From a virus, in the IMG/VR virus record IMGVR_UViG_3300041964_000194, positions 1-53,373 of that record: a DNA stretch of 53,373 nt; one strand, given 5' to 3'. The notes below the pieces were generated by a model. That model made no database searches. It was not told the DNA's origin and was given only the letters and a program-made list of their open reading frames with translations. Of the stretch, positions 2,225-50,022 are shown in pieces. How positions within the stretch are numbered: position 1 is the stretch's first letter; each line of letters opens with the position of its first letter. The position numbers and the translations under genes are program-made.

Positions 2225-2692
2225 GTGCCCAAGCAAATCGACTGGGAAGAAATTCGCAAGTATTGGCAGACCACCGGCGCATCTTCGCAGGCGATCGCGG
2301 ACCACTTCGGCGTTAGCAAACGAGCGGTTGACGATCGCCTGCCGCAGTGGAGATCGACTGAGAAAAGCCCGAAGGTTGTGACGCTCCAGGCCAGGTCGGA
2401 ATCGCGGCAGCCAACAACGCATCCGCCGATTCGCCGCCGCATTCCCAAAGGGCAAATAGACAAGCTCGAAATTCTTGAGGACGCGATCGCCCAGCTATCG
2501 GCGACGCTCAGCGGTGATGTTGACCCCAGGTCAATGGGCAGCATCGCAGGCGGCCTAATCAAGCTGATGGAATATCACGACAAAAAGCAGCCGCTGACAG
2601 CAGCAGAAGTTGTGGATCTGGCGATCGAGGTGGGAGTTACCCCGCAGCAGTTTGTCGATGAATTGAAGGCAGCATGGCAACAGCGAGCCTGA
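2225..2692 (+). CDS. terS: Putative terminase small subunit
   Basis: 155 residues starting at GTG. An N-terminal helix-turn-helix is visible (residues about 5-40: WEEIRKYWQTTG, SQAIADHFGVSKRAVDDRL), followed by a linker and a helical C-terminal half. TerS recognises the packaging site and recruits the large subunit. It overlaps the terL start by 19 bp, the usual arrangement. The HTH plus position immediately before a clear TerL is the basis; the C-terminus matches nothing I can name. Confidence 0.75.
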   Translation: MPKQIDWEEIRKYWQTTGASSQAIADHFGVSKRAVDDRLPQWRSTEKSPKVVTLQARSESRQPTTHPPIRRRIPKGQIDKLEILEDAIAQLSATLSGDVDPRSMGSIAGGLIKLMEYHDKKQPLTAAEVVDLAIEVGVTPQQFVDELKAAWQQRA

Positions 2693-4155
2693 AGCAGCAG
2701 TATCTCGCCGCGCTGGAAGCCGAGTTCTGTGAGCCGCAAGCAGAAGCTGAAACCAAGCCGCTCCTCACCTTCCGCGAATTTGTCGATCGCGTTTACCCGA
2801 AATATCAGTGGTATCGCCACAACGTTGTCCTGGGTAATGCTTTGCAGCGCGTGGCAGATGGCGAGCTAAAGCGGCTGATGGTGTTCATGCCGCCACGCGG
2901 CGGCAAGTCGCTGCTAACTTCCAAACTGTTTCCGGCCTACTACCTCTATCGCCACCCCGATCGCTTCGTTGGCTTGAATGCCTACAGTGCTGAGCTGGCT
3001 TACACCTTCAGCCGTGCTAGTCGCGAAGCCTTTCTACAGAATGGTGGCACGCTCAAGGGCGATGCAGCAGCAGTAAAGCATTGGGAGACTGAGCAGGGCG
3101 GTGGCTGCTGGGCGGCAGGTGTGGGCGGCTCAATCACCGGAAAGGGCTACTCGCTCGGACTGATTGATGATCCACTGAAGAACGCTGAGGAAGCCTTCAG
3201 CGACAAGATTCGCGCCAAGCAAAAGGAGTGGTATGAATCCACCTTCTACACTCGCGCTGAGCCAGACGGGGCGATCGTCGTGGTGCAGACCCGTTGGCAT
3301 CAAGACGACCTCAGCGGCTGGCTGCTGAGTGAGGAGGCCGGCAGCGACCAGCCGGAGGGTTGGCACATCGTCAACTTCGAGGCCATCAAGGAAGAGACGC
3401 TGCCCGACTTCCCCAAAACCTGCACGGTCGAACCGGACTGGCGATCGCCTGGTGAGGCACTGTGCCCGGAGCGCTTCACACTCAAGCGGCTGCTGCAAAT
3501 CATGCGCAAGGTCGGGACGCTGTTCTGGTCAGCCATGTACCAGCAGCGCCCATCTCCGGCTGAGGGTGACTACTTCAAGCGCAGTTGGTGGAAGTTCTAC
3601 CCGTTAGCTCCAGCGCAGTTCGATCGCGTTATTCTCAGCGCCGATTGCACCTTCAAAGAATCGAAAAAATCTGACTTTGTTGTCCTGCAAATTTGGGGAC
3701 AAAAAGGCGGTGAATTCTGGCTGCTAGACCAGGTGCGCGGGCGGATGGATATCAACGCCACCATCACTGCGATTCGCGCTTTGTGCGCCAAATGGCCGCA
3801 GGCGACAGCGAAATTAGTTGAAGACAAAGCCAACGGCTCAGCAGGTCATCGACCTGCTCAAACGCGAGATCTCAGGGCTGCTTCCCATCGAGCCAGAGGC
3901 GGCAAGCTGGTTCGTGCTGTGGCGATCGCCCCTTACGTTGAGGCGGGAAACGTCTATATTCCCGATCCGGCGATCGCGGCCTGGGTAAACGACTACATCG
4001 AAGAGTTCGCGGTCTTTCCGAATGGCGTGAATGACGACCAGGTAGACGCCACCTCGCAGGCGCTCAACTGGCTGAAACAGAATCCGCCGCCCTGTACCCG
4101 CCCGTCGCTACACTCCCACATCAAGCCGGAACTGGTAGGAACGCTGACGGCGTAA
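2674..4155 (+). CDS. terL: Terminase large subunit
   Basis: 493 residues: an N-terminal ATPase and a C-terminal RNase H-fold nuclease, the motor and headful/cos nuclease that packages DNA into procapsids. Walker A is MPPRGGKS (about residue 75), Walker B is LGLIDD, and the nuclease acidic clusters are SADCTFKE, LVEDKANG and GVNDDQVDA. Between 3844 and 3901 the frame slips: the other frame gives VIDLLKREISGLLPIEPE, which fits exactly between EDKANGSA and GGKLVR. So there is one extra base near 3844 and one missing near 3900. The C-terminus overlaps the leader motif of the portal gene. Confidence 0.93.
   Translation: MATASLKQQYLAALEAEFCEPQAEAETKPLLTFREFVDRVYPKYQWYRHNVVLGNALQRVADGELKRLMVFMPPRGGKSLLTSKLFPAYYLYRHPDRFVGLNAYSAELAYTFSRASREAFLQNGGTLKGDAAAVKHWETEQGGGCWAAGVGGSITGKGYSLGLIDDPLKNAEEAFSDKIRAKQKEWYESTFYTRAEPDGAIVVVQTRWHQDDLSGWLLSEEAGSDQPEGWHIVNFEAIKEETLPDFPKTCTVEPDWRSPGEALCPERFTLKRLLQIMRKVGTLFWSAMYQQRPSPAEGDYFKRSWWKFYPLAPAQFDRVILSADCTFKESKKSDFVVLQIWGQKGGEFWLLDQVRGRMDINATITAIRALCAKWPQATAKLVEDKANGSAGHRPAQTRDLRAASHRARGGKLVRAVAIAPYVEAGNVYIPDPAIAAWVNDYIEEFAVFPNGVNDDQVDATSQALNWLKQNPPPCTRPSLHSHIKPELVGTLTA
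4135..4143 (+). promoter_or_regulatory. GTAGGAACG motif upstream of portal gene
   Basis: Located inside the last codons of terL, 34 nt after which the portal GTG (4177) begins. No convincing hairpin is visible in the spacer here. Confidence 0.35.
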
Positions 4156-4176: not shown

Positions 4177-5632
4177 GTGAAAACCGCTCAAACTCTTAGC
4201 CTGAAATCGATTCAAGAAAACCAGCGGTACTACGACGGGGAATTTTGGTCTTCTTGGATTGGTCCCAGAATTCCAGATAATGAACCCGGCGCGGCTGACC
4301 TGATGGCCGAGGTGAAACGGATCTTCCAGTCGGTAAACATGGTGCGCGAGTGTGTCGATCGCCATGTTGCAGCACTCATCGGCAGATTCCCCGTCTGGTA
4401 TTTGAAGGACAAAAGCGGAGAGCGGATTGAAGCAAGTGAGGCGGAGAAACTGCTTCAACGCTGGCTCGATGCCGTGCAGCAACGATCGGCATCGGGAGCA
4501 ACTGAGCAAGGGCGATCCATTTTTGAGTCTGTCACTAACCTGGCTATCAACGGAGAAGGGGCACTTCGGCTGTGGCAGCCCGCTCGATTTGAGAGCGCCT
4601 CAGACCCGATCGAGCGCATCCACCTGCACGCTGTCAAACCTGGCTCGCTGGAAGTTGAGCGCGGCGATGATGGGTTCATTGACGAACTGCGCTACCGCTA
4701 CGGCCAAAACAAAACTGAGGTTGAGCGGCTGGAAGACAACGGCGATCTAACGATCGAAAGCGATGACCTGGAAGAGCCGCTGACGCTTCCCACAGGCGGA
4801 CGCTGGACGATTTCGCAGATGCGCTCGCCCTCACTGCTGACGCCACAAATTAAGCAGAACCAGGATGCGGTCAACCACAGCTTGACCATGATGCTTCGCA
4901 ATCAGGAGCAGGCTGGGTTTCTCGATCGAATCTTCCTCAATGCCCAGCCTCCTGGCGAGTGGGTGGACGATGCCACGGCTCCAGGCGGCCAGCGCTTCGT
5001 GCCCAACGGCAAGGGTCTGGAGAAGGGCGCTGGTATCGACAACTTCCTGTTCGGAGTCCCCACCGGCGACCCAGCAGAACCCCACGTACACGACTCCGAG
5101 CGTGGTGACGAATCAGCCGATCGCGCCTGATGGGTTTCTCAAGTCGATCGCCGCCTACCGCGAATTCATCTATCACAGCTTCGGTCAAGGTCATCTACTT
5201 GCCAGCGCCGATGGCAACATCAACGGTGTCTCTAGAATCCAGCTACGTCAGGATTTCGAGATGAAACTGACGCGGCAGAAAACGACGATCGAAGCGGCGA
5301 TCGCCAACATCCTCAACGTGGTCCTGCGGATTCTGGGCTACGAGGAGCTTGAGGCAGTGGTGCAGCTCCGAATCACCACTGGCAAGCTGTCACCTGAAGA
5401 GCGGCAGATGATTATCACCGAGTTCGATAAGGGACTGCTGTCAAAGGCCACGGCGATCGCGCTTTTAGGAAGTGTCGAGGATGTCGATAGCGAACTCGCA
5501 CTCATCAGAGAGGAGGCCACAGAGGAGATGCGATCGCGCTCCAGCGACGACGACGACGATCCGCCAGTGCCAAACAACGAACCAACACCGCCAAACAACG
5601 AACCAACCGACGAGGAGCCAGATGAAGCCTAA
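4177..5632 (+). CDS. Portal protein (frameshifted reading)
   Basis: About 484 residues when two frames are joined near 5072, where one extra base separates GVPTGDP from QNPTYTTPSVV. The portal is the dodecameric ring at the unique vertex through which DNA enters and leaves. Start is GTG 4177 (MKTAQTLSLKSIQEN). The N-terminal half has the portal pattern VNMVRECVDRHVAALIGRFPVW, and the C-terminal half includes SRIQLRQDFEMKL and an acidic D/E/P-rich tail (DDDDD, NNEPTPPNNEP). Position directly after terL and before scaffold and capsid fits. Whether the frameshift is biological or an error is open. Confidence 0.8.
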
Positions 5633-11019: not shown

Positions 11020-11811
11020 ATGCCACAATTTCTCAACACAGTTATCACTCCAGCTCTGAACAGTACGGGACTGCTGCAAATTCCGATGGGTTCGCCGGAA
11101 GGCTTGACGCTCAGCCCGAACAGCACAATCCCCGATCTACAGCTCGATATCGCGCCTGGAAGGGCGATCGTTGCAGTAGGCAGCAATCGATACGTTGCGA
11201 TCAACAGCTCAACCATGACCAAGCGGCTCGATGCGGCTTGGTCGATCGGCAGCGGCAGTGGCGGCTTGTTTTCGGGCCGTGGCGCAGGCAATACGACCTA
11301 TCACGTCTTCATCATTCGGCGAGCGACCGATGGGGCGATCGACTTTGGCTTTGATGCTTCGGCATCTGCGGCGAACGCTCCGAGCGGCTGGAACGCCCGG
11401 ATGATTGGATCGATCCGCACTCTGGCAAACGCATGGATTCGAGGTTTTTTTCAGGCTGGCGATCGGTTTCAGTGGACGACAGAAGGGGTAATTGATCTTG
11501 CGACTGGCACAACTTCCACTTCAACCACAAACCTGCAAGCGCTGACCGTCCCGACAGGGATTCGGGTCTGCCCGTTTGGAATCACTGATCACTTCAATCC
11601 TTCGAGCGTTGCGGGTCTTTTCCTTAGTTCTCCAGACGCATTCAGTGCGCAGCGCCACGCTTACAGCGCAGCAGTGAATACTCAGGAGCGTACTCCGTTT
11701 TTGACTCTCTCCAATACCAGCGGCCAAGTCCGGCTGTATTCTCCAGTAGCAAACACGAATACAACGATCTACACCTACGGTTTCTTCCACCCTAGAGGAG
11801 CGTGGAGCTAA
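11020..11811 (+). CDS. Putative tail fibre / tip protein (263 aa)
   Basis: Intact. Begins MPQFLNTVITPAL, like the reconstructed start of the preceding fibre (MPQFQNTI), suggesting a shared attachment peptide. It is rich in Ser, Thr, Asn and Gly, with a glycine-rich loop (GSGSGGLFSGRGAGN) and alternating hydrophobics through to YTYGFFHPRGAWS. This is the composition of exposed tail-tip domains. Its TAA overlaps the next ATG (11809-11813). Confidence 0.6.
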   Translation: MPQFLNTVITPALNSTGLLQIPMGSPEGLTLSPNSTIPDLQLDIAPGRAIVAVGSNRYVAINSSTMTKRLDAAWSIGSGSGGLFSGRGAGNTTYHVFIIRRATDGAIDFGFDASASAANAPSGWNARMIGSIRTLANAWIRGFFQAGDRFQWTTEGVIDLATGTTSTSTTNLQALTVPTGIRVCPFGITDHFNPSSVAGLFLSSPDAFSAQRHAYSAAVNTQERTPFLTLSNTSGQVRLYSPVANTNTTIYTYGFFHPRGAWS

Positions 11812-25415: not shown

Positions 25416-25444
25416 GAACGCTACGGCAGTCTCCCTCCCTGCCG
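25412..25444 (+). promoter_or_regulatory. GTAGGAACG leader with hairpin, upstream of tail hub gene
   Basis: Motif 25412-25420; perfect 6-bp stem CGGCAG/CTGCCG (25424-25429, 25439-25444), then one base and ATG 25446. Effective AGGA-to-ATG spacing is 7 nt when folded. The TAG of the previous gene is part of the motif. Confidence 0.55.
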
Positions 25445-25445
25445 A

Positions 25446-27277
25446 ATGGTCGTCGATCGCCGCTCTCGCCGCTTCAAAATCATCATTGTTCAGCCTGGAG
25501 AAACCGAGTCCACTGGGCTGGATGTGAGTGCGATCGTTGCCTCTTTTGAAGGCGGCAACAATGCGATCGGCCAGTCTGGGATTTGCTCTTTTACAGGCGA
25601 CCTGACGCTCAACGCCTATTCGCTGGGAAGTGGCATCAATACCAATCCCCGCAGCGATCGCAAGCGCTGGGCGCGAGGCAATCGCGTCATCATCTATCTG
25701 GCCGACAGCAGCGGCACTCTGCTTAAATACAAAACCTTACACATTCTCAAAGCACCGTTAGCGCCAACGCCACAGACGCGCCCAACGCTGCAAATCTCAA
25801 CCGGAGACAAGCTCAGCCTGCTGTCGTTCCGGCAGCCACCCGGAGACGAGAGCGGAGTCGAACCGGGAACCAGCAAGACTCGTTTGCAAGTGGTGAACGC
25901 CCTGCTCGCAGCAGCCGGAGCGGGCATGGTGTTCGGGTCGATTCCCGGCAACGTGCCCTGGCCGTTGCAGAAGCTCTGCAACGAATCATTCATCCAGGAA
26001 GCAGGGCAGATTGCCTTCGCAGCAGGGCGATATCTGTGGGTCGATCGAGCTGGAACGGTTCGCGCCAGCGCCCTGCCGCTCGACAACTCTGGCTCAGCGA
26101 TCGCACGCTCATCATTGGGCAGGATGAGCTGATTTATGAGCCGATCGAAGTCGCGGAAACGCCTGCCGAGGTCGTTCGCTGCATCGGCAGCGAGTATCTG
26201 ACCAGCTTTACCTCTGACTACACCAGGAGCGAAAACGAGTCCTGGGGACCAGCGGCGATCGTCAGTCCCAACGCAGGCGGAAAGACAATTCTGCTGCAAG
26301 AGACGATCGAGGAAACCTGGTCCGGCTCGGTGCGGAGCGTGCGGACTCATCGAGTCGAGCCGCGCGGCATCTTGTTCCTGAAGTGCAGAGCAACCGCACG
26401 ACGCTGGTTCCCAGCCTCAGCCAGGAAGAAAATTTTATTTACGAACCCAGCATCGAAGGCAAGCTGCTGAGAATTGAACGGTCAGCTCGCAGGCCATACG
26501 GCGTCGTGCTGCGCGAATACATGGCAACCCAGTCGCCGCTGGAGCAGGCGTTCAACCGCAGCAATATCATTCCGGCTGAGCGGACGACGACAACCTACAG
26601 CTACGAGAAAGGGCAGACCAGCGATATCTCCACGACCACAGCCGAGCCGCAGGGAGCGATTCTGCCGACTGAGGACTGGACGTATGGAAACCCAACATTT
26701 TTAGTTACTGCCAGCGCAGAGAAGCAGTCCTGGGAGGAGCTGTATCCGAGCGAGTGGCAATACAAAAAGCTGACTTATGCCGCCGCAGCGCGAGAGTATC
26801 CCGAAGTCATTGAGGCGATGCCACCCGAGTCGCCGACTCAGCCAAGCTGGGCGTCCTGCTGGTTGGCAAGCAAACAGTCACCTCCAACTCCGGCCAAGCC
26901 CAGCCACCCGCGCCCGATCGCCGCAAGCCGAAGGTCACGGTAAAGGAAAGCCCGATCGAAGGCGAGGCGAAGTTTAAGAGCTACGCAGGCTCGGAGTTTC
27001 AGGAGCGCGAGCGGGTTTACGACGTGCCCTATGCCACCCAACAGGAACTGGACTTGGCCGCTCAACGGCTGGGCAAGCTGCTGATCGGGCGCAACCAGGG
27101 GCAGCAGATTGGCTTCGCCCTGGACGACTACTGGCTTAGCGATCCGCCGCCGTTACAGACGATCGCAGTGACGGAGCCGGATGGCTCGAAGCAGAAATAT
27201 CTGCTCGACACCTCACGATCTCACTGGATGCGCGGACTGCCACTTGGGAGCAAACGGCATCTGGCTCGGCAGCTTGA
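25446..27277 (+). CDS. Tail hub / tail-associated protein (frameshifted reading)
   Basis: About 610 residues joined across shifts near 26100, 26375, 26880 and 27210. The N-terminal domain (RRFKIIIVQPGETESTGLDV, GICSFTGDLTLNAYSL) and phrases such as GKLLRIERSARRPYGVVLRE and YPSEWQYKKLTYAAAAREYP recall virion hub proteins with gp27-like barrel repeats. The end reads LTISLDARTATWEQTASGSA. It follows the distal-tail gene and precedes a lectin-like gene, so a baseplate hub role is likely. Confidence 0.6.
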
Positions 27278-27288
27278 AAACCAGCGTC

Positions 27289-28258
27289 ATGAGTTCCACT
27301 GGTGAGACGGTCGAAGTGCTGGATCTGCCTTACCGTCAAGAGTTCAGCATGACCAGTCGATCGGATGGACGCGCAGAAATTCTCCTGTCGCCTTATTCGC
27401 TCGTTCCTCAGACGCACGAACTGCTCAGCCGCTCAGATGGGCGCGCAGAATTCTCGACGCTGGAGATGACTGGCGGAGATGACGGCAGAGGAACCTTCAC
27501 GATCATCCCAACACTGGCTAGCAATCGTGACGGCAGATCAACCTTCACAGCCGTGGTCAAATCCACGCTGACCAATAATGTCGCGGCGGCTTGGAACTTC
27601 AACGGCAACTTTACCGATGCCGTCGGCAGCAACAACCTGTCGATCGTCAAAACCTTCTCGGAGCTGGGAATGTTTCTTTTGTCAGCGGGAAGGTTGAGCA
27701 GGCCGCCTGCTGGACCGCATTGCCTATCTGAGCTGCCCTAGCCACTCAGCGCTGGGGCTGAGCAGTGCCAACAATTTCACGATCGCCTGCATTGCTTCAT
27801 ACACAGAAGCCAACCCTAATCTCAATCTTGCAGGTAAGTGGAGCGACGATTTCACCTCGATCTATTACGACAGCTTCCCCGAATATGCGCTGCGCCTCTA
27901 TACCAATTCCGGTGGCACAGGTTTCAGGTTCAGGCCGGATTCAATGCGGCTGCTGTCAGCGGCGGCATCGTAGCAGGCGTTTATCTGGTCGTCGGCTGGC
28001 AAGACGCCTTCAACCTCGCAGCTCGGCGTCTGGGTGCGCAGCTTCGACACCGGAACCGTCTGGTCTGCCACGACCACATATAGCGGCACTCGCAACTCAG
28101 AAGCCATCAGCAACTTCAGGGTTGGAGAGCAAAACACTACTGGCTCGCCTCCTGATATCTGGATTGACGGACTGGCGATCTGGCGGCGAGCGCTGACTAA
28201 CGGCGAGCGCAACGACTTGTACAACAACGGTTTGGGGCGCGAATACCCCTATCTATAG
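27289..28258 (+). CDS. Tail protein with DGR-motif repeats and concanavalin-like domain (frameshifted reading)
   Basis: About 323 residues, several shifts between 27660 and 28020. The N-terminal part has four imperfect 18-30-residue repeats centred on SDGRAE, SDGRAE, DDGRGTF and RDGRSTF. The C-terminal part is a LamG/concanavalin-like lectin domain: VAAAWNFNGNFTDAVGSNN, FTIACIASYTEANPN, VYLVVGW, QLGVWVRSFDTGT, WIDGLAIWRRALTNGERNDL and YNNGLGREYP. Such domains bind surface sugars, so receptor or biofilm binding is likely. A good AGGAG follows for the next gene. Confidence 0.65.
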
Positions 28259-28269
28259 GAGATCAAAAA

Positions 28270-28941
28270 ATGGCTGTTCAGTGGGATTATTCGTCGGTCT
28301 GGGAAGTTCGGAGCTTGAATCTGCGGCGCGGCATCGGACCGCTGCCCGACCCGAATCAGTTTCGCGTCCTGCTATTCAACGGATCGACGCTGACGAAAAC
28401 AATGTCCAAGGCTGCCATGCTCGCAGCAGAATTGCTCCAGCAAAACGGCTACGCTCGGCAGCCTTACAACCCGACCAACGCAACCTACAACGCCACGACC
28501 CAGCGGGCAGAGCTGCCGAGAGTGACGGCGAATTATACGGGAGCCGGAGCCACATTGCAGTGGGATGCGGCGGCAGTTTTGGCCGATTGCCGTGCCACTT
28601 CCTCAAGAGCCATCAGCGCGATCGATGCAAGTACAGACATCCTGACTATTAACAGCCACGGTCTCACCAACGGCGAAGAGGTCACGGTCAGCACAACCGA
28701 TACGTTCGCAGGCGGACTCGAAGGTAGCCTGATCTATTACGCCAAGGTCGTTACCGCAAACGCAATCCAGCTCTGCTCAGATGCCGCAACCGCCAGCGTT
28801 GTGAACATCACCAACGCTGGAGTCGGCACACATCACCTCCGTTACGCGAAGGGCGATATCGTCTTTTTCGGTAACTTTCCCGGTTCGCAGACCATCGGCG
28901 ACGGCGTGACCGAATCCCTGCAAGTTGATTGGAAGAGCTAA
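28270..28941 (+). CDS. Virion structural protein with inserted beta-sandwich domain
   Basis: 223 residues, intact, with AGGAG seven bases before the ATG. Starts MAVQWDYSSVWEVRSLNLRR and FRVLLFNGSTLTKTM; the middle contains ISAIDASTDILTINSHGLTN and a domain ending TNAGVGTHHL, a phage structural motif (HGLTNGE) that looks inserted into the base fold, since VLADC before it and YAKGDIVFFGNF after it read as one domain. Tail-tip location. Overlaps the next ATG by one base. Confidence 0.6.
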   Translation: MAVQWDYSSVWEVRSLNLRRGIGPLPDPNQFRVLLFNGSTLTKTMSKAAMLAAELLQQNGYARQPYNPTNATYNATTQRAELPRVTANYTGAGATLQWDAAAVLADCRATSSRAISAIDASTDILTINSHGLTNGEEVTVSTTDTFAGGLEGSLIYYAKVVTANAIQLCSDAATASVVNITNAGVGTHHLRYAKGDIVFFGNFPGSQTIGDGVTESLQVDWKS

Positions 28942-31140: not shown

Positions 31141-32925
31141 TCATTCAGCTAGGTCATCAGGAGCGTTGTTCACAATCCATTCTGTTAGTGCTACTCCGTA
31201 TCTCACTTTGTTGTCCTGAAGAGACATGGCTGTCAGAAGACTAATGAAAAGATCTGTCAGGATTTTTTGTTCCGTCTACCTCTTCTAGCCACTGTTGCGT
31301 GAGCGGATCAGCAGTGCTTGAATGTGGCTGAAAATATTTGTCTCCGTCCACGTTTTTGTAACACTGTTCAACCTCCTCCGAGGTAACTGATAGATTCTCA
31401 GAGCTAAGAACTGTACTAATTGCACCAGGGGTTTAGTAGATAGTATTCATACATCTTCCGCGCCAAAACGATACTTTTCCATTGCTTCGACGCGTCAAGA
31501 TCTGCTCGCTCTCTCGGAGTGCGCTTCTCCCGATCGAATATAAAGCCGATGGCGGGCGGCAATAAACCTCGTCCCTGGCTCAGGCGCTGGTAGATTTCAA
31601 AAACTGTTTTAGAAAACATGCAACAAAATCACCAGTTTGCAGTACTCCCATAATCTGTGTACCAACAAAGGAAGCCTTAAAATCTTCTCTACATTATGGG
31701 GAAGCACTCTTCTTCTGTTTTCCCTTCTACCCATAAGATATTAATCTGCTCCAAATGTGTCAGTAATTTTGCTCCAACCTCCTTAAGAAACAAGCTCCAT
31801 CTGTCGATTTCCGAAACGTCTATTGTCTCTACATCGCTTTCAAACTCAGTCTTACGAACTAAAAAAAGATTTCAGGATTTGTTGCAGTTACCGCTGTTGG
31901 GGAATGCGTTGTAATAATAAATTGATGCTCGAATGAAGCTTCAAAATCTCGATAAGTTTTCTAAGAGCACCTGGATGCAAAAAGCTCTGTGGCTCGTCAA
32001 TAACTATAGTCTGTGGCTGAGCCGAATTAATAACAACATAGAGTATTGCTAGAACTTGTCCAATTCCTGTTCCACTTTCCGATAGTGGCACTGCCAGATC
32101 ATTCCGCTCATATCTTGATCATGATGCCAGATAAGAATCTGAACTCGATTTCCACCAATTGGGTATGGTGTATACCCTGAATGGATGGAAAAACAGTTCT
32201 GGCAAAGAGAAGGAACCTGTCAAAGCGAGTTACGATTAGATTAGCAATAGATTATACTTGTAGCAAGATTTTCAGCGTTATTTGCTAAGTATGAGTTATT
32301 TCCGATTTCCCAGCTTCCGATGTTTACACCTTCGCCTTGAACATATAAATTTGAGCGAAAACAAATTTGCTAATTTAATTCCATATGATTCTTCTAGATT
32401 AAAATTTCCATAATTTCCTTGTTCAAGCTGCCTCGTTTCCAAATTAAATAAATATTCACTCCAGGCAGGTGTGAGGATGAGACGGTTGGTAACTAGCACA
32501 GCCTCTAAGCTAGTTTCTATATTGGTTAAAAGTGCTGAAGAGGAATTTGCCTTGTCTATAAACACACACTAAGCCCTAGACCTATGTATTGAAGTCAAGA
32601 ATCGTTGCAGGGAATTATTAAGGTCACGTTCGGCAGAAGGAATCAAAAAACTTGCAATTTGTTGTAGCGATTCAATGACTCTTTTGGCTCTAGAGAGAAA
32701 TATATGCGGCATTCAGCGACTGGATTGAATGTCTGGCTTGAGTCTGGTTGAGGTAGAGTTTATAGGCTTGCGATGAGGGTGGTTTCAAACTGTGAGCTAA
32801 TGCCTCTAGAAGTGCTGTTTTTCCAACATTATTCTGCCCAACAATTACGTTAAATCCTGGCTCAAGAAATAACCTGAATCAAGAAAGCTTTTATAATTAA
32901 CAACTTTGAATATGGATATATACAT
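31141..32925 (-). pseudogene. OLD-family AAA ATPase / TOPRIM nuclease, broken
   Basis: About 590 residues on the minus strand, spread over all frames. Start ATG 32925 gives MYISIFKVVNYKSFLDSGYF; Walker A is VGQNNVGKTALLEAL (about 32830-32860), Walker B IDEPQSFLHPG (about 31990), then FIITTHSPTAVTATNPEIF, a TOPRIM box ILWVEGKTEEECFP (about 31705) and FIFDREKRTPRERADL (about 31540), ending ALTEWIVNNAPDDLAE. OLD-type proteins couple an SMC-like ATPase to a TOPRIM nuclease and act in phage defence or superinfection exclusion. No GajB-like helicase partner is next to it. AT-rich; more than six indels make it inactive as drawn. Confidence 0.75.
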
Positions 32926-37126: not shown

Positions 37127-38053
37127 ATGAACAGAATTGAGTTTTTGCGTTTTCGCCGATCTTACGAGTGGGTATTGCGTCAAGTTCTACTAGATCTTGA
37201 ATTTTTTATTGAAGATTTAGTTGGAATTAATGTTTATGCAGTAACACATCGACTAAAGACTTTTGAAAGTGCTCTTGAAAAATCAAAGCGGCTTAATCTG
37301 AAAATTGATGAAATGCAAGACATCGCTGGCATTAGAATTGTTGTAGCAACTTCAGATGAAGTTGCGATTCTTGCTCGCTTCTTCTCTAGAAAGGCTGATT
37401 TAAAAGATCTCATTATCAAGTCAGACGAAATAATTGATAGAAAAAATGGTTATCGAGCAAGGCATTTAGTCTTAGAGTTCTCAGGGCACTATTCGCGCTC
37501 AATGCATTCAGCCTTTGTAGAAGTTCAAATTCTCACTCTTTTGCAAAGCACTTTCAATTATATTTCAAGAGCTTGGGTATACAAAGCTGATTGCGCATTA
37601 ACGGATACATGGCGCTCCAATTTCCAAAGATTATCCAGTGATTTGGCGGAAATCGATCAAAGAATTGCTCAGCTACAGAAGCAAGTTGTTGAATCCTCTG
37701 TATCTTCAGCGCCAAACGATCCTCTCACTCCTTTTTCTTACCAACAAATCGTTACTGAAACCTTCGGAGAAACCATCAAAATAAACGATGCAGTAGATAG
37801 CGTACAAATGTTAATTGATCTGGGTTGTGATACAAATGGAAAATTACAAGATTTCTTCGGAAGAAATGACATTTTAAACATGCGTGAACAGATTATAGCC
37901 ACGAAGTCAGAAGCTGGACAAGCTTTTGCAGAACTTGTAACTAGCCTGTCAATCCATAGTTTTTATATGATGTTTGGTCTTCGAGTTGACTCGACCAAAG
38001 AATTGATTCAATGGCTTAATCAAGCTAAGCCAAAAAATGAAAGCTCACAATAG
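37127..38053 (+). CDS. RelA/SpoT-domain nucleotidyltransferase (small alarmone synthetase / toxSAS-like)
   Basis: 308 residues, intact, AT-rich, GAGG five bases before the ATG. The synthetase core lies at about residues 45-165: KRLNLKIDEMQDIAGIRIVV (with the conserved D and R), DRKNGYRARHL, and FVEVQILTLLQSTFNYISR followed by AWVYK. There is no HD hydrolase or TGS domain. A helical C-terminal part of about 130 residues follows (LSIHSFYMMFGLRVDSTKEL). Such stand-alone enzymes make (p)ppGpp or act as toxins, pyrophosphorylating tRNA in phage defence. The usual His before YK is Arg here. Its neighbour at 38134 could be a partner. Confidence 0.85.
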   Translation: MNRIEFLRFRRSYEWVLRQVLLDLEFFIEDLVGINVYAVTHRLKTFESALEKSKRLNLKIDEMQDIAGIRIVVATSDEVAILARFFSRKADLKDLIIKSDEIIDRKNGYRARHLVLEFSGHYSRSMHSAFVEVQILTLLQSTFNYISRAWVYKADCALTDTWRSNFQRLSSDLAEIDQRIAQLQKQVVESSVSSAPNDPLTPFSYQQIVTETFGETIKINDAVDSVQMLIDLGCDTNGKLQDFFGRNDILNMREQIIATKSEAGQAFAELVTSLSIHSFYMMFGLRVDSTKELIQWLNQAKPKNESSQ

Positions 38054-38642: not shown

Positions 38643-39460
38643 TTAAAATAAAGTTCCTTGAACTATTTCTGGTTGTGCCTTACTTGGCTTAGGTGGCCAG
38701 AAAACACCGAGCACAACCCATGTATTGTATGGAAATACTGTGCCCATGAAGAAACGGGTATCCTTGCTTTCGTTACATAGCTCGTCAAGGAACTTGTGGC
38801 GAACGCTTAAAGCTGCTTGGTTTTCATCCCTCAAACGAGCTACTTCATTCAGCCAAAGCACCCCTAGCTCCCAGTCCTCAATCATGGCATTGTGAGGTTT
38901 GTTGCTATCATTGCATTCAAAAACATAGCTAAACTTGTACGGTATTTTGCGAAGAGGTTTTTGAACTGGTCCAAAAAGGGTCAATTGATCGAACAAAGCT
39001 TGCCATTCTGGTTTCCATTCAGGATCAGCGGGTTCAATCTTTAAATCAAGTATCCTTGTAGGCTGCACAATACCAAGTGATACATGTTCAGATTGATGCA
39101 GTTCCCGTAACTGCTTTACCGTATGAACCGAAATCCGATCGATAATTTGACGCCGCTCTCTCCATCCATCTTTGTGGAGAGCGGTTCTCCTAAAACGCGG
39201 AGCGTATCTAAAATCGGTTTTCTACTTTCTTTCCTCCGATCATTGCCAGCTCCCTGGGGAAAGAGATCAACTTCTATCCACTGATATTTACGGAATTGTT
39301 GATTTCTGGGTCTGTAACGGTAGTCTACTGGATAAAGCCGTACCCATTCGCCCTGTTCAGTTACACCAGCTGTACAAACAAGTTCTTGATAACCTCTAGA
39401 TGGATGTGGGTAGGTCATCACAGTAATAAGAACTTTAGTTCTGATTGCCTGATTACTCAT
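38643..39460 (-). CDS. Dual OB-fold domain protein (frameshifted reading)
   Basis: About 272 residues. ATG 39460 (MSNQAIRTKVLITVMTYPHP) lies two bases after the DUF488 stop. The N-terminal domain has LVCTAGVTEQGEWVRLYPVD and RYRPRNQQFRKYQWIEVDL; one base is lost near 39172, then WRERRQIIDRISVHTVKQLR leads to ILDLKIEPADPEWKPEWQAL and FMGTVFPYNTWVVLGVFWPP. The pattern of two beta-barrel domains with GEWVRLYPV is that of proteins found next to DUF488 genes; a nucleic-acid-binding role is plausible. Third gene of a minus operon. Confidence 0.65.
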
Positions 39461-39462
39461 GC

Positions 39463-39942
39463 CTAACATCCCAAATGCTTGATCGGCATATCGATTAAAG
39501 TTGTTAGGTGTTGAGCTAAAACATTGCGATGGCAAAATTTTGGATTAGCTTCCATACACACGAGGACACTAGGGTCAGATTGCAATAACCTACTTACATT
39601 GGTCAGATCCTTTTCACGAGAGGGAAGATTACAACGATAATTTTCAAACAGGGCTGTGTATTTATGATGAGAGTCTAGATGTTCTCGTTCTGAGCTTGGT
39701 ATTCCCAAACCAGGAAGGTGTTGATAGTCTATTTTCAAAGAGCTGCATAAGCGTAAAAGAGTACTTTTATGGAAACCATATCGGCGTGAAATGGGATTAT
39801 ATCGGACATCAATCAAACGTGATATACCGGATTCCATAAGAAGATTTAGAAACTCATCAACGGTTTTGCCTTCATAACCAGCAGTATAGATAGATGTCTC
39901 AGCAACTGGGCGTCTTCTCTTTTCTTCCTCCAGGAAGATCAC
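39463..39942 (-). CDS. DUF488-family protein
   Basis: 159 residues, intact. Family motifs are IYTAGYEGKTVDEFLNLL, LIDVRYNPISRRYGFHKSTL, the HLPGLGIP stretch, and the C-terminal Cys-containing VLVCMEANPKFCHRNVLAQH. DUF488 proteins have a rhodanese-like fold with conserved Arg, Cys and His; their reaction is not settled, and they often sit in defence-rich regions. The frame overlaps the upstream gene by 44 bp. The intact frame contrasts with the broken genes nearby. Confidence 0.85.
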   Translation of the reverse strand: MIFLEEEKRRRPVAETSIYTAGYEGKTVDEFLNLLMESGISRLIDVRYNPISRRYGFHKSTLLRLCSSLKIDYQHLPGLGIPSSEREHLDSHHKYTALFENYRCNLPSREKDLTNVSRLLQSDPSVLVCMEANPKFCHRNVLAQHLTTLIDMPIKHLGC

Positions 39943-40327
39943 TGTTGATTGTAAACCAAGAGTACTTGTCGTAAATTAGACTTATTAACTGTTGTCCAGA
40001 TAATTTCCCGTAAATCTCAGAAATTTGGCAAATATCTTTAGTGACATCATTTGGCAAATTTATTTCTAGTTCTTCCCTAAGAGTAAGATTCCATCGATTG
40101 TCAAGTCCTTTTTCCAGGAAACCATTACGAATAAGTGAATCGGTTTCCTGATTGAGAGTAAAGGAGTAAGGACCGTACCGATACGGAATGAATTGATAAA
40201 ACGTTTTCCCGCCATGAGATGGCGTTTCACAAGACAATAAAAATGCCCACTTCATTATTTGCAAGCTGGAAGCTGCACCTCCAACTTGCTGAAGCATCAT
40301 CAGTAGGGCTTTTTGTCGGTGTAACAC
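39899..40327 (-). CDS. Hypothetical protein, possible DUF4065 (Panacea)-like
   Basis: 142 residues, intact, first gene of the DUF488/dual-OB operon. Helix pair, then LQIMKWAFLLSCETPSHGGK, FYQFIPYRYGPYSFTLNQET, DSLIRNGFLEKGLDNRWNLT and a helical end. A leucine-rich helix followed by an aromatic-YGP-S motif is the shape of DUF4065/SocA-like (Panacea) proteins, which act as antitoxins and adaptors. The match is weak and by eye. Its start lies within AT-rich DNA; no operator seen. Confidence 0.5.
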   Translation of the reverse strand: MLHRQKALLMMLQQVGGAASSLQIMKWAFLLSCETPSHGGKTFYQFIPYRYGPYSFTLNQETDSLIRNGFLEKGLDNRWNLTLREELEINLPNDVTKDICQISEIYGKLSGQQLISLIYDKYSWFTINSDLPGGRKEKTPSC

Positions 40328-41117: not shown

Positions 41118-42233
41118 ATGGACGTTTCAGATCTTGTCGAGGCCGCAAACCAGAGGCTTAGGCTGGCACGGATTGCCGCGTCGATCGAGCTGCGCGGCAA
41201 AGAGCAGCGACTCTACCTGCGAGCCACACTGCCGCCAAAACCGGGACACCCGCGATCGTATCCCTACCAGCAACGCATTTGTCTGAACCTACTAGGAACA
41301 CCCAGAGCAGTGAAATTTGCAGAGGCGCAAGCAAAACTGCTGGGAGCGGAGCTGGAAACAAAAAGCTTTGATTGGAGCCGCTGGGACTATTCACCCCATC
41401 GCCCCACAGCAGAGACGATCGCGGACTGGGTGCAGCGATTTGAGGAGGATTTTTGGAGCCGGAGAGAGCGAGATTCTGGGCGAGAGGCAACCTGGAAGAA
41501 TTATCTGAAGGTATTTCGGCATCTACCACTCGATCGCCCGCTCACCAGTGAAGTGCTGCGAAAGCGAATTAAAGACACAGACGAAGACTCGCACCATCGA
41601 CTACAAACCACACTGGTGCTTTGGCGACTGGCGAAATTTGCTCAGATCAAGGGCTGGGAAGATTTGATCAAGTTGAAGGGCAGATACTCTCCCAAGCGAG
41701 TAAATCCTCGATCGCTGCCAACTGACGAGACGATTGCCAAGGTGCAGCAGTCGGTCAGCGACCCTGGCTGGGCATGGATTATCGGTATGCTTGCGGCTTA
41801 TGGTCTGCGCAATCACGAAGTTTTTAAGCTGGACTTGAGCCAGTTTCCCAACATCCGGGTGGAACCAACCAACAAGACTCGCTCTTCTAGGCTGATTTAT
41901 CCGCTGTATCCCGAATGGGCTGAGCGCTGGAAACTAGGCGATCGAGTTCTACCAAACGTACAAATTCGACCTGGGATGGGCAACTCTGCGCTGGGTGCCA
42001 AAATTACGGCGGCGTTCTGGTATCAAGATTTGCCTTTCACGGCCTACGACTTGCGCCACTGCTTTGCCCGCCGCTGCTTCGAGTTCGGCATTCCGATCGA
42101 GACCGCAGCTCGACTGCTGGGGCACTCGGTCGATCGCCATCGGGAGACCTATCAGGCGTGGATTGGCGAATCATCGCACCGGTTTGCCTATGAGCGGCAA
42201 ATTAACAGGAGCGATCGACCTCTGCCGCCCTAA
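41118..42233 (+). CDS. int: Phage integrase (tyrosine recombinase)
   Basis: 371 residues, intact. An N-terminal arm-binding region (about 1-60) precedes a core-binding domain (TAETIADWVQRFEEDFWSRR, about 95-180) and the catalytic domain: Arg in AYGLRNHEVF, Lys near NKTRSSR, box II YDLRHCFARR (the usual first His is Tyr), LGHSVDRHRETY with the nucleophile Tyr, then AWIGESS. It would catalyse insertion at the tRNA 3' end. It converges with the 42493 gene, their stops overlapping by 3 bp. Confidence 0.9.
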   Translation: MDVSDLVEAANQRLRLARIAASIELRGKEQRLYLRATLPPKPGHPRSYPYQQRICLNLLGTPRAVKFAEAQAKLLGAELETKSFDWSRWDYSPHRPTAETIADWVQRFEEDFWSRRERDSGREATWKNYLKVFRHLPLDRPLTSEVLRKRIKDTDEDSHHRLQTTLVLWRLAKFAQIKGWEDLIKLKGRYSPKRVNPRSLPTDETIAKVQQSVSDPGWAWIIGMLAAYGLRNHEVFKLDLSQFPNIRVEPTNKTRSSRLIYPLYPEWAERWKLGDRVLPNVQIRPGMGNSALGAKITAAFWYQDLPFTAYDLRHCFARRCFEFGIPIETAARLLGHSVDRHRETYQAWIGESSHRFAYERQINRSDRPLPP

Positions 42234-47938: not shown

Positions 47939-49233
47939 ATGACTAATCAACCTTCTCAGCTAGATTTGTTTGGCTCGTCTGATGATAGCGAAAACTTCTT
48001 CAATCGCAAACAAAACTGGTCAATCATTAAACATCGCGTCATGCTGAGATATATTCAGTCGTTTTGTTACAACTTGGGTGGAGACAGCGAGTACCAATCT
48101 AAAACGCTGAACTATGTTGATGGATTTGCAGGTGAGGGACGGTATGAACAGGGAATTGGTATTGAGGAATTTGTAGATAAATCTAGTTTTTGGCAGCGGT
48201 ACGAGCATCGTTTTTCAAACACAGATGGCTCCCCTTTGATTGCCTTGCGATGCGCCAAAATCTTTCAGGATGAAGATCGAGTCAATTTGCGCTGCTTCTT
48301 TGCAGAAGCAGGAAAAAAAGAATACCCAAAATTAGTTGATAATTGTGCTTCTGTAGGGCAGGTTTGGAGTACAAATTTATGAGAGACAAACATTTGCCAA
48401 GACCTTGCCACAAATTATGAAAGATCTGCATGGATATCCAACTCTATTTTTCCTAGATTCCTATGGAGTCAAGGGAGTCGATTTTGAGCAGATGTGTTTG
48501 ATTGGTGACTATTTGAGCCAGTACAAGGTGAATTATTTGTGCTGTTTCACAATCGAACTGTAGCCGTGATGCAGGCTATTTCACTCAAAATCTGAAAAGC
48601 CGCGCATGATCCAAGCCGCCCAAACTTGTATGGGTCATCTGACCAAGCATTTAGGTGTAGATTCAGATCGTGATTGGCAACCACAAATGGTTGACACTTA
48701 AAGATCAGCCACAACAATTTGAGCGCTGGGCATTGCGCTACCTCAAAACAAGACTTCGGCGGGAGAGCCAGTTCAAGGGAGCTGCTAGCTTTGAGATTAA
48801 AGAGACTTATAACGAAACCCGACCTCAATACAGCATTTTAGTGTGCAGCAATCATCCAAAGAGGCGTTTGGGGAATTTCTAAATGAGTTTCGTCGCAGAT
48901 GAGAATCGATTGTTATATCATCAGGTCGATAAATCAGGACGGATCGCCAGTTTCTTGAGCGGGAATGGAATCGCGAAGTTAAAGAGCGAGTTGAACAATA
49001 GAGCCTGAAGTTAGAGCAGCATTAAAGCGAGTTAATCAAGGCTGGAGCCACTCAAAGAGGTTATCACTTTAGTTATTATAGAAATGATTTTGCTTGACTA
49101 TGATTTAGGCTATTTAAAGCGAACTCAATACAAAGAAATCATTCTTAATTTATACCAAGAAGGCATAATACAGGCTCAAAAACTAAATAAAAAAGGTGAT
49201 TTAACCCTTGAAAGTTTAATCAGAATAATATAA
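47939..49233 (+). CDS. tcmP: Three-Cys-motif partner protein TcmP (frameshifted reading)
   Basis: About 430 residues with several shifts after 48360. Family features are SIIKHRVMLRYIQSFCYNLG, LNYVDGFAGEGRYEQG, DGSPLIALRCAKIF, LRCFFAEAGKKEYPKLV, LFFLDSYGVKGVDFEQM and the C-terminal DYDLGYLKRTQYKEIILNLY. The DGFAGEG motif recalls class I methyltransferases. TcmP is known to co-occur with the DUF5131 three-Cys protein, which is the next gene here. AT-rich compared with the phage genes. Confidence 0.8.
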
Positions 49234-49270
49234 GATTTAAAGTTTAAACAGTTTATTATCTGGGACTGTT

Positions 49271-50022
49271 ATGTCGGCACTTTCAGCGATCGAGTGGACT
49301 GAATCTACTTGGAACCCTACAACAGGCTGTAATAAAATCAGTCCAGGATGTACGCATTGCTACGCTGAAAGATTTGCTGAAAGATTTCGAGGAGTTCCTG
49401 GGCATCCCTATGAACAAGGATTTGATATCCGTCTTTGGCCTGATCGATTAACAATGCCACTGACTTGGAAAAAACCACGCTTAGTTTTTGTAAACTCGAT
49501 GAGTGATCTTTTTCATCCTGAGATTCCAGATGAGTTTATTAAAGCGGTATTTTCTATGATGCAGCAAGCACATTGGCATCAATTTCAGGTACTTACAAAA
49601 CGCCCTGAACGAATGCTTGAAATTGCTAAACAGATAGACAAGCTCTGCTAATGTTTGGGCTGGTGTGAGCGTAGAATCCCAAGCTTGGGCTTGGCGCGTT
49701 GATGTCTTAAGAGAGATTCCTGCTCAAATCCGGTTTCTGTCTTGTGAACCGCTGCTGGGAGATTTAAAGCTTCTGTTGGATGATATTCACTGGGTCATTG
49801 TTGGAGGCGAATCTGGTAATGGCGCAAGGCCAATGCAGGCAGAAATGGGTCAGAAACATTCGAGAGCAGTGCATCAGCGCCAAAGTTCCCTTTTTCTTCA
49901 AGCAGTGGGGCGGAGTGCAGAAGAAGCGGAACGGACGAACACTTGACGATAGAACTTGGGATGACTTTCCTCAATTTGGTGCAGCCCGCTGCTCAATCAA
50001 ACAGATAGCATTACCACTGTGA
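49271..50022 (+). CDS. DUF5131 / phage Gp37-Gp68 three-Cys-motif protein (frameshifted reading)
   Basis: About 250 residues, shifts near 49645 and 49845. [20 protein letters not shown] followed by [15 protein letters not shown] gives the three-Cys cluster [11 protein letters not shown], similar to radical-SAM-type iron-sulfur sites. Later parts are [70 protein letters not shown] and FKQWGG. Partner of TcmP (37 bp upstream). The enzymatic role is unproven. Confidence 0.85.

What the first reader, a model, noticed from the sequence alone, without database searches (positions are those of the whole stretch)
31141..32925. Relic OLD-type AAA/TOPRIM nuclease in phage cargo
All landmark motifs (VGQNNVGKT, IDEPQSFLHPG, ITTHSP, VEGKTEE, FDRE) are present in order but spread over three frames. 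No helicase partner adjoins it, so it resembles single-gene OLD and not Gabija. Phages such as P2 use OLD for exclusion of other phages.
Basis: partly seen in the sequence, partly recalled or inferred. Interest (0 to 1): 0.5.

Follow-up and report, generated by a model that had tools for sequence, protein, structure and literature searches.

The report
Stand-alone OLD nuclease, indel-scrambled in record
A prophage of a cyanobacterium carries a full-length gene for a known kind of anti-phage ATPase-nuclease (OLD family); its reading frame is scrambled in this record, more likely by insertion/deletion errors in the sequence than by true decay, so the finding is fairly ordinary.

Summary
On the minus strand of 31141-32925 lies a complete OLD-type gene (ABC ATPase plus TOPRIM) broken over three frames: eight pieces cover profile positions 1-595 of 609 in order. 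Thirteen intact relatives of 596-662 aa define the family. No UvrD helicase or reverse transcriptase was found in the record and no partner recurs among 71 neighbour ORFs of 14 relatives: a stand-alone OLD by context. "Relic" is poorly supported. A frame-aware alignment needs about 18 shifts (12-27 by penalty) but one internal stop, and 44 of 44 invariant residues away from shifts are kept (51 of 54 in all). Frame breaks also hit terminase, VapE helicase, TcmP, DUF5131 and two candidate defence genes. Indel errors explain this best, though the OLD gene is hit several times harder than others tested. HIP1 sites point to a cyanobacterial host (68 against 1.1 expected). One mild surprise: the TOPRIM region of the closest relative fits the PARIS tRNase AriB at least as well as OLD DNases. 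New member of a known kind.

The parts
31141..32925 (-). Full-length OLD-family ATPase-TOPRIM gene, scrambled over three frames
   Evidence: 8 profile stretches covering 1-595/609; frame-aware alignment 582 codons, 18 shifts, one internal stop; 13 intact relatives
32693..32878 (-). Piece with Walker A (VGQNNVGKTALLEAL)
   Evidence: AAA_15 5.2e-6 and AAA_23 7.5e-6
31891..32118 (-). Piece with ABC signature-like SESGTGIGQ and Walker B (IVIDEPQSFLHPG)
   Evidence: AAA_21 4.9e-10; 85% identical over 59 aa to Dictyobacter L083
31862..31960 (-). Piece with ITTHSP switch motif
   Evidence: only AAA_15 at 0.15 on its own; in register in tblastn of relatives
31692..31871 (-). Piece with first TOPRIM acidic motif (WVEGKTEE)
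   Evidence: no Pfam match on its own; inside profile stretch 345-497, E 3.9e-38
31419..31628 (-). Piece with FDRE and KMYEYYLL (further acidic sites)
   Evidence: no Pfam match on its own; corresponds to invariant D471 and E500 of the family
31144..31275 (-). C-terminal piece, holds the position of invariant K583
   Evidence: no Pfam match on its own; profile 555-595, E 5.1e-5

Best explanation
A prophage of a cyanobacterium carries, in an A+T-rich cargo island, a full-length stand-alone OLD-family gene: an N-terminal ABC ATPase that senses and gates, joined to a C-terminal two-metal TOPRIM nuclease. Most likely it is intact in the real virus, and the broken frame comes from insertion/deletion errors in the assembled record. 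By analogy with P2 Old it would help a lysogen shut out competing phages: an act of the invader (for P2, inhibition of RecBC) releases the TOPRIM nuclease, which cuts nucleic acid and stops the infection. Shown here: domain order, ATPase and TOPRIM motifs, no helicase or RT match in the record, relatives without a recurring partner, frame breaks elsewhere in the record. Inferred: error rather than decay, exclusion function, trigger and substrate.
For: Family: profile match over positions 1-595; AAA_15, AAA_21, AAA_23 and DUF2813 over the curated cut-offs in 3 of 3 intact relatives, OLD-like_TOPRIM below cut-off in 2 of 3 and listed for 11 of 13 C-terminal regions at E up to 10, best 2.5e-5; PADLOC 'Old' is the top model for 2 of 3 relatives; the ATPase half of the model matches SMC, Rad50 and PtuA heads at Z 17.7-20.9; the C-terminal model matches AriB, Xcc/Bp OLD and Ts OLD at Z 8.1-12.3. 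Context: no UvrD, no RT, no recurring neighbour family at E 1e-10 in 71 ORFs of 14 relatives. Artefact rather than decay: 18 shifts against one internal stop, and 0 shifts in 4 of 4 intact controls; 44 of 44 invariant residues kept; that puts a 95% ceiling of about 50 on neutral substitutions; terminase has a block where another frame fits G208 at 14 of 27 against 1 of 27 in frame; DUF5131, TcmP, VapE and PDC-M19A/B are also split between frames.
Against: Shift density is uneven: 18 in 582 codons here against 2 in 480 for terminase and 16 in 3174 for eight other genes together, so uniform error does not explain it; a locally weak assembly or real decay of this gene would be needed. Shifts are not clearly enriched at homopolymers (8 of 18 within 6 nt of runs of 4 or more, chance 4.8, P 0.085). 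Three of 54 invariant residues differ close to shifts. The window's end branch (1.06) is longer than that of its neighbour L083 (0.61; median 0.81). There are no reads and no near-identical second copy. On function: in E. coli YbjD, a class 1 OLD, the TOPRIM domain was dispensable and a Walker A mutant still acted on phage (PMC13261556, passages), so the two-step mechanism need not hold for every stand-alone OLD.
Confidence: 0.62

Rival explanations
1. True pseudogene: the OLD gene is a decaying relic in a partly decaying prophage.
For: Shift density is several times higher here than in the other genes aligned; one in-frame stop far from any shift; longer end branch than L083; no significant tie of shifts to homopolymers.
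Against: Conservation at constrained columns is that of an intact gene. With a usual bacterial excess of substitutions over indels (about ten to one, recalled), no change in 44 invariant codons has probability about 2e-5 for 180 neutral substitutions and 0.004 for 90; counting the three changes beside shifts would soften this. Frame breaks also occur in genes a phage needs.
Confidence: 0.28
2. Single-chain PARIS-like system (ABC sensor fused to an AriB-like TOPRIM tRNase) rather than an OLD DNase. This can be true whether or not the frame is really broken.
For: The C-terminal model of the closest relative matches the 306- and 305-residue chains of PARIS complexes, AriB by their length, at Z 12.3 (211 aligned, 4.5 A) and 11.7 (204, 4.1 A), against 9.6-9.8 for Xcc/Bp OLD (168-175 aligned) and 8.1 for Ts OLD (132 aligned). 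PADLOC AriA and AriAB profiles also match L083.
Against: By sequence the C-terminal region lists OLD-like_TOPRIM in 11 of 13 members and the AriB family DUF4435 (name-to-family link recalled) in 2 of 13, at E up to 10. The OLD crystal chains are truncated regions, which may lower their Z. Foldseek ranks Xcc/Bp OLD (E 4.2e-4 to 2.7e-3) ahead of the PARIS chain (3.4e-3). On the whole model its first rows are retron Eco8 and, at rank 4, GajA.
Confidence: 0.15
3. Gabija GajA whose helicase partner was lost or missed.
For: GajA models match the relatives; the protein has the length of class 2 OLDs; one of the 71 neighbour ORFs itself matches GajA-type ATPase models.
Against: No UvrD-type match in the record, with the control ringing in 14 of 14 genomes; GajB is not among the 22 families found at E 1e-10 in 71 neighbour ORFs of 14 relatives.
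Confidence: 0.03

Closest known systems
Phage P2 Old and other class 1 (stand-alone) OLD proteins, e.g. Thermus scotoductus OLD (6P74)
   Same: Single gene; ABC ATPase then TOPRIM; the spacing of the first acidic pair (E406/E410 of L083) is that of Ts E377/D381 (Ts positions from PMC7049728, passages); carried by a temperate phage, as in P2.
   Different: Low sequence similarity (6P74 at E 3.3e-6 with L083 over 90 residues; 1.4e-10 with the family profile); about 90 residues longer than Ts OLD, with a longer helical C-terminal region.
Class 2 OLD: Gabija GajA; Xcc and Bp OLD C-terminal regions (6NJV-6NJX, 6NK8)
   Same: Similar length and C-terminal fold (Z 9.6-9.8 for Xcc/Bp).
   Different: No helicase match in the record and none recurring near relatives.
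PARIS (AriA ATPase plus AriB TOPRIM tRNase; sometimes one chain, PMC12409363, passages)
   Same: Best structural match of the C-terminal region, Z 12.3; same two domain types.
   Different: Sequence favours OLD-like_TOPRIM over DUF4435.
Retron Eco8 OLD effector (class 3) and MADS MAD3 ATPase
   Same: ABC ATPase (with TOPRIM in Eco8: C-terminal Z 6.2). NCBIfam scores with L083 far below cut-off: NF047739 73.3 of 420, NF038234 59.2 of 250.
   Different: No reverse transcriptase match in the record.

Membership tests
OLD family | N-terminal ABC ATPase with Walker A and Walker B | tested here: met
   Motifs in window pieces; AAA_21 4.9e-10; 3 of 3 relatives over Pfam cut-offs; fold Z 17.7-20.9 to SMC/Rad50/PtuA heads
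OLD family | C-terminal TOPRIM nuclease domain | tested here: met
   Model of the L083 C-terminal region, pLDDT 85.7, matches PARIS and OLD structures at Z 8.1-12.3; OLD-like_TOPRIM listed for 11 of 13 members, weak, at E up to 10; a sequence profile of this region finds no TOPRIM chain in the PDB
[quoted passage not shown]
   E406, E410, D471, E500 and K583 invariant in 13 of 13 relatives, E473 in 90% or more; window pieces read VEGKTEE, FDRE, KMYEYYLL. Their catalytic role is by analogy with PMC7049728 (passages), not tested
Class 1 OLD | Stand-alone gene, no helicase or RT partner | tested here: met
   No PF00580 (control 14 of 14) and no PF00078 (control 4 of 14) in the record; no recurring partner at E 1e-10 in 71 of 108 listed neighbour ORFs. 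The record may be a fragment
Class 1 OLD | Shorter C-terminal region without the class 2 helical domain | tested here: inconclusive
   Relatives are 596-662 aa against 528 for the 6p74 chain; the model has helices after the TOPRIM core, but no direct superposition was made
[quoted passage not shown]
Class 3 OLD (retron) | Adjacent reverse transcriptase and ncRNA | tested here: not met
   No RVT_1 match; no Rfam match at gathering score (retron ncRNAs need not be in Rfam)
PARIS (AriAB) | AriB-type (DUF4435) TOPRIM effector | tested here: inconclusive
   Structure Z 12.3 and 11.7; DUF4435 listed for only 2 of 13 members, best 0.003

The most novel reading that the evidence does not exclude
The family is a stand-alone, one-chain ATPase-TOPRIM defence protein whose effector is an AriB-like tRNase, a one-gene link between P2 Old-type exclusion and PARIS, here carried by a cyanobacterial prophage beside several other candidate defence modules.
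Probability: 0.18. Interest if true: 0.5.

Novelty: new member of a known kind. Interest (0 to 1): 0.25.

Why it matters
It warns against calling phage cargo genes relics from a single error-prone record: a residue-level constraint test and a look at essential genes of the same record change the reading. It also adds a cyanobacterial prophage to the carriers of stand-alone OLD proteins, which PMC13261556 (passages) calls poorly understood and rare, and gives a set of intact relatives that can be tested for DNA or tRNA cleavage.

Tried and rejected
Near-identical copies: a megablast of 1-25000 against phage records gave no match; a 24-base exact pattern from the OLD piece found nothing in viral contigs; the 76-aa piece found no relative in viral contigs and none in phage records. 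So no sister phage with the same gene was found, and the finding's own check (an intact copy in sister phages) could not be done. The two closest phage relatives by terminase, G208 (67%) and G122 (62%), gave no ORF of 80 aa or more that matches the OLD region, in the 60 kb and 48.9 kb looked at. Two viral contigs carry distant full-length relatives (L134 31%, open frame 608 aa; L133 27%, open frame 571 aa). In phage records the whole L083 protein found two partial matches only (32% and 24% covered).

Homopolymer cause of the shifts: tested, not significant; protein-level placement of shifts is only good to a few codons, so power is low. VapE relatives in viral contigs: none. GajA chains are not in the C-terminal structure list; that absence says nothing.

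Control alignments, all eight rows: terminase 2 shifts in 480 codons; small terminase 0 in 154; integrase at 641 1 shift and 1 stop in 305; integrase at 41118 0 in 367; minor head 3 in 526; ORF at 1622 0 shifts but 3 stops in 134; tail gene 10 shifts and 1 stop in 851; ORF at 11020 0 shifts and 1 stop in 357. Only terminase rests on three relatives; the other seven rest on one relative each, some distant, so a shift or stop there may be misalignment or profile overhang.

Relatives dropped: of 18 loci, 13 were aligned; L084 runs off its contig, L085 and L088 have open frames of only 375 and 233 aa, L087 repeats L086, and L100 is another kind of ABC protein (UvrA-like by eye, recalled). In the tree 3 of 8 cyanobacterial loci (L123, L125, L126) fell out because the script read them on the wrong strand.

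Of 108 neighbour ORFs listed I gave 71. The 37 left out are all 7 of L087, three longer ones (L083:10493-12058, L095:11044-11814, L098:11002-11652) and 27 of under 185 aa.

Full report
What is there. The window is the whole of one virus record of 53,373 bases, which may itself be a fragment. On the minus strand, 32925 down to 31141, three frames together carry one OLD-type protein from its start codon to an in-frame stop. A profile of 13 intact relatives finds eight stretches in this record at E up to 1, all of them here, covering positions 1-595 of 609 in order, best E 3.9e-38. The piece with Walker B alone matches AAA_21 at 4.9e-10. The region is A+T-rich (GC 0.44 and 0.38 in its two kilobases, against 0.52-0.63 in the first 31 kb), as expected of acquired cargo.

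Host and phage. The record is full of the octamer GCGATCGC (68, against 1.1 expected from base composition), known as HIP1, a hallmark of cyanobacteria (recalled). It carries integrase, terminase, major head, head decoration, minor head and tape-measure genes and a second integrase. The closest terminases among 388 genomes of the class of Calothrix PCC 7103 are 67% and 62% identical; 21 of 388 genomes matched at all.

Relatives. One 76-aa piece found 18 loci in the genome collection: Chloroflexota, cyanobacteria, Nitrospira, Bacteroidetes, Proteobacteria, Pyxidicoccus and others. Thirteen intact ones, 596-662 aa, were aligned; the five dropped are told under Tried and rejected. In the same 388 genomes, 8 hold a close relative (56-78% over the piece); 78 of 388 have some match at E up to 0.001, mostly distant. 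The window's copy groups weakly (88/76) with Dictyobacter and not with the cyanobacterial relatives, which form a group of their own (94/94); neither branch reaches the tool's mark for firm support.

Domains. Three of three intact relatives scanned match AAA_15, AAA_21, AAA_23 and DUF2813 over the curated cut-offs; OLD-like_TOPRIM is below cut-off in two and absent in one. No NCBIfam model shown reaches its cut-off (for L086 the best 25 of 33 were shown). The ATPase half of the model (mean pLDDT 77.6) fits SMC, Rad50 and PtuA heads (Z 17.7-20.9). Foldseek on the whole model puts retron Eco8 first and GajA at rank 4. The C-terminal region, modelled alone (pLDDT 85.7), fits the PARIS effector chains (Z 12.3 and 11.7), Xcc and Bp OLD (9.6-9.8), Ts OLD (8.1) and retron Eco8 (6.2); the next rows are small TOPRIM proteins at 4.7. 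Foldseek orders the same set differently, Xcc/Bp OLD first. Residues E406, E410, D471, E500 and K583 are invariant in the 13 relatives, and the matching motifs stand in the window pieces.

Context. There is no UvrD-type helicase match (control 14 of 14) and no reverse transcriptase match (control 4 of 14) in the record. Among 71 neighbour ORFs of 14 relatives, each of the 22 PADLOC families found at E up to 1e-10 occurs once; GajB is not among them. By the context-based scheme in PMC10568477 (passages read) this is class 1, the stand-alone class of P2 Old. The longer C-terminal region is unlike Ts OLD, so I file it as an OLD-family member that is class 1 by context only.

Relic or artefact? 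A frame-aware alignment to the profile gives 18 shifts and two stops, one of them the natural end; over the penalties tried, shifts run from 12 to 27 and stops from 1 to 3. Four of four intact controls gave no shift. Conserved residues are kept: 44 of 44 invariant positions at least four codons from a shift, 51 of 54 overall; at columns conserved in 75% or more of the other rows the window has 86.0%, inside the range of intact relatives (58.9-95.0%). No change in 44 codons puts a 95% ceiling near 50 neutral substitutions; counting the three changes next to shifts would raise that ceiling. Decay normally brings many more substitutions than indels (recalled), so decay fits poorly.

The same kind of damage lies in genes that the phage needs. 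In the terminase a block near 3.83-3.89 kb reads in a shifted frame: over 27 positions 14 match G208 in the other frame against 1 in frame; for G122 it is 12 against 7, the 7 all at the near edge. The VapE-type helicase is split between two frames with adjoining profile ranges, and DUF5131, TcmP, PDC-M19A and PDC-M19B are split likewise. Long-read-only virus assemblies can carry hundreds of indels per 100 kb (474 on average in one mock community; PMC6487183, passages read). I do not know how this record was made.

Against this, the OLD gene is hit harder than the rest: 18 shifts in 582 codons, against 2 in 480 for terminase and 16 in 3174 for eight other genes together, about six- to seven-fold. 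The shifts are not clearly tied to homopolymers, and the window's branch is longer than its neighbour's. A locally thin assembly would explain the excess; so would real, indel-rich decay. I put artefact near 0.65 and pseudogene near 0.3.

How it would work. P2 Old protects lysogens against lambda (PMC10568477, passages) and is reported to sense RecBC inhibition and then cut a host tRNA (Govande et al. 2025, seen only as cited in PMC13261556, passages). By analogy the ATPase here would sense an invading phage and release the TOPRIM nuclease. Whether the target is DNA or tRNA is open; the AriB-like fold of the C-terminal region makes tRNA a fair possibility. A caution: in E. coli YbjD, also a stand-alone OLD, the TOPRIM domain was dispensable for the anti-phage effect (same paper). 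Trigger and substrate are inference.

Novelty. One search for 'overcoming lysogenization defect' with cyanobacteria and prophage found one paper, on Tn7-like transposon cargo (PMC8649781, search listing only). I make no claim that this is unreported. It is a new member of a known kind.

Noticed in passing
37127-38053 +: Open ORF of 308 aa with a RelA/SpoT synthetase domain (RelA_SpoT 5.4e-14; PADLOC PDC-S33 3e-19): a possible alarmone-type defence toxin in the cargo.
   Followed up: partly
38646-40327 -: Candidate defence pair PDC-M19A (with DUF488) and PDC-M19B, each split over two ORFs in different frames.
   Followed up: partly
48017-50022 +: TcmP (TIGR04474, 57.3 bits, over its cut-off of 53; in two frames) followed by DUF5131 in three frames (PDC-M41A/B models): a further candidate defence module.
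   Followed up: partly
2674-4155 +: Terminase large subunit with a block near 3.83-3.89 kb in a shifted frame that leaves the ORF open, which an ORF finder would not notice.
   Followed up: yes
4177-5632 +: Two overlapping same-strand ORFs; only the second matches the end of portal profiles (phrog_64 4.1e-9): the portal gene is probably frame-broken too.
   Followed up: no
641-1504 + and 41118-42233 +: Two different tyrosine-type integrases in one record; possibly a second integrated element or a cargo island with its own integrase.
   Followed up: no
25434-28400 +: Staggered same-strand ORFs where relative G208 has one 953-aa ORF: probably one frame-broken structural gene.
   Followed up: partly
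1622-1963 +: Stretch 60% identical to a G122 ORF; the alignment to that ORF shows three in-frame stops in or beside it in the window.
   Followed up: no
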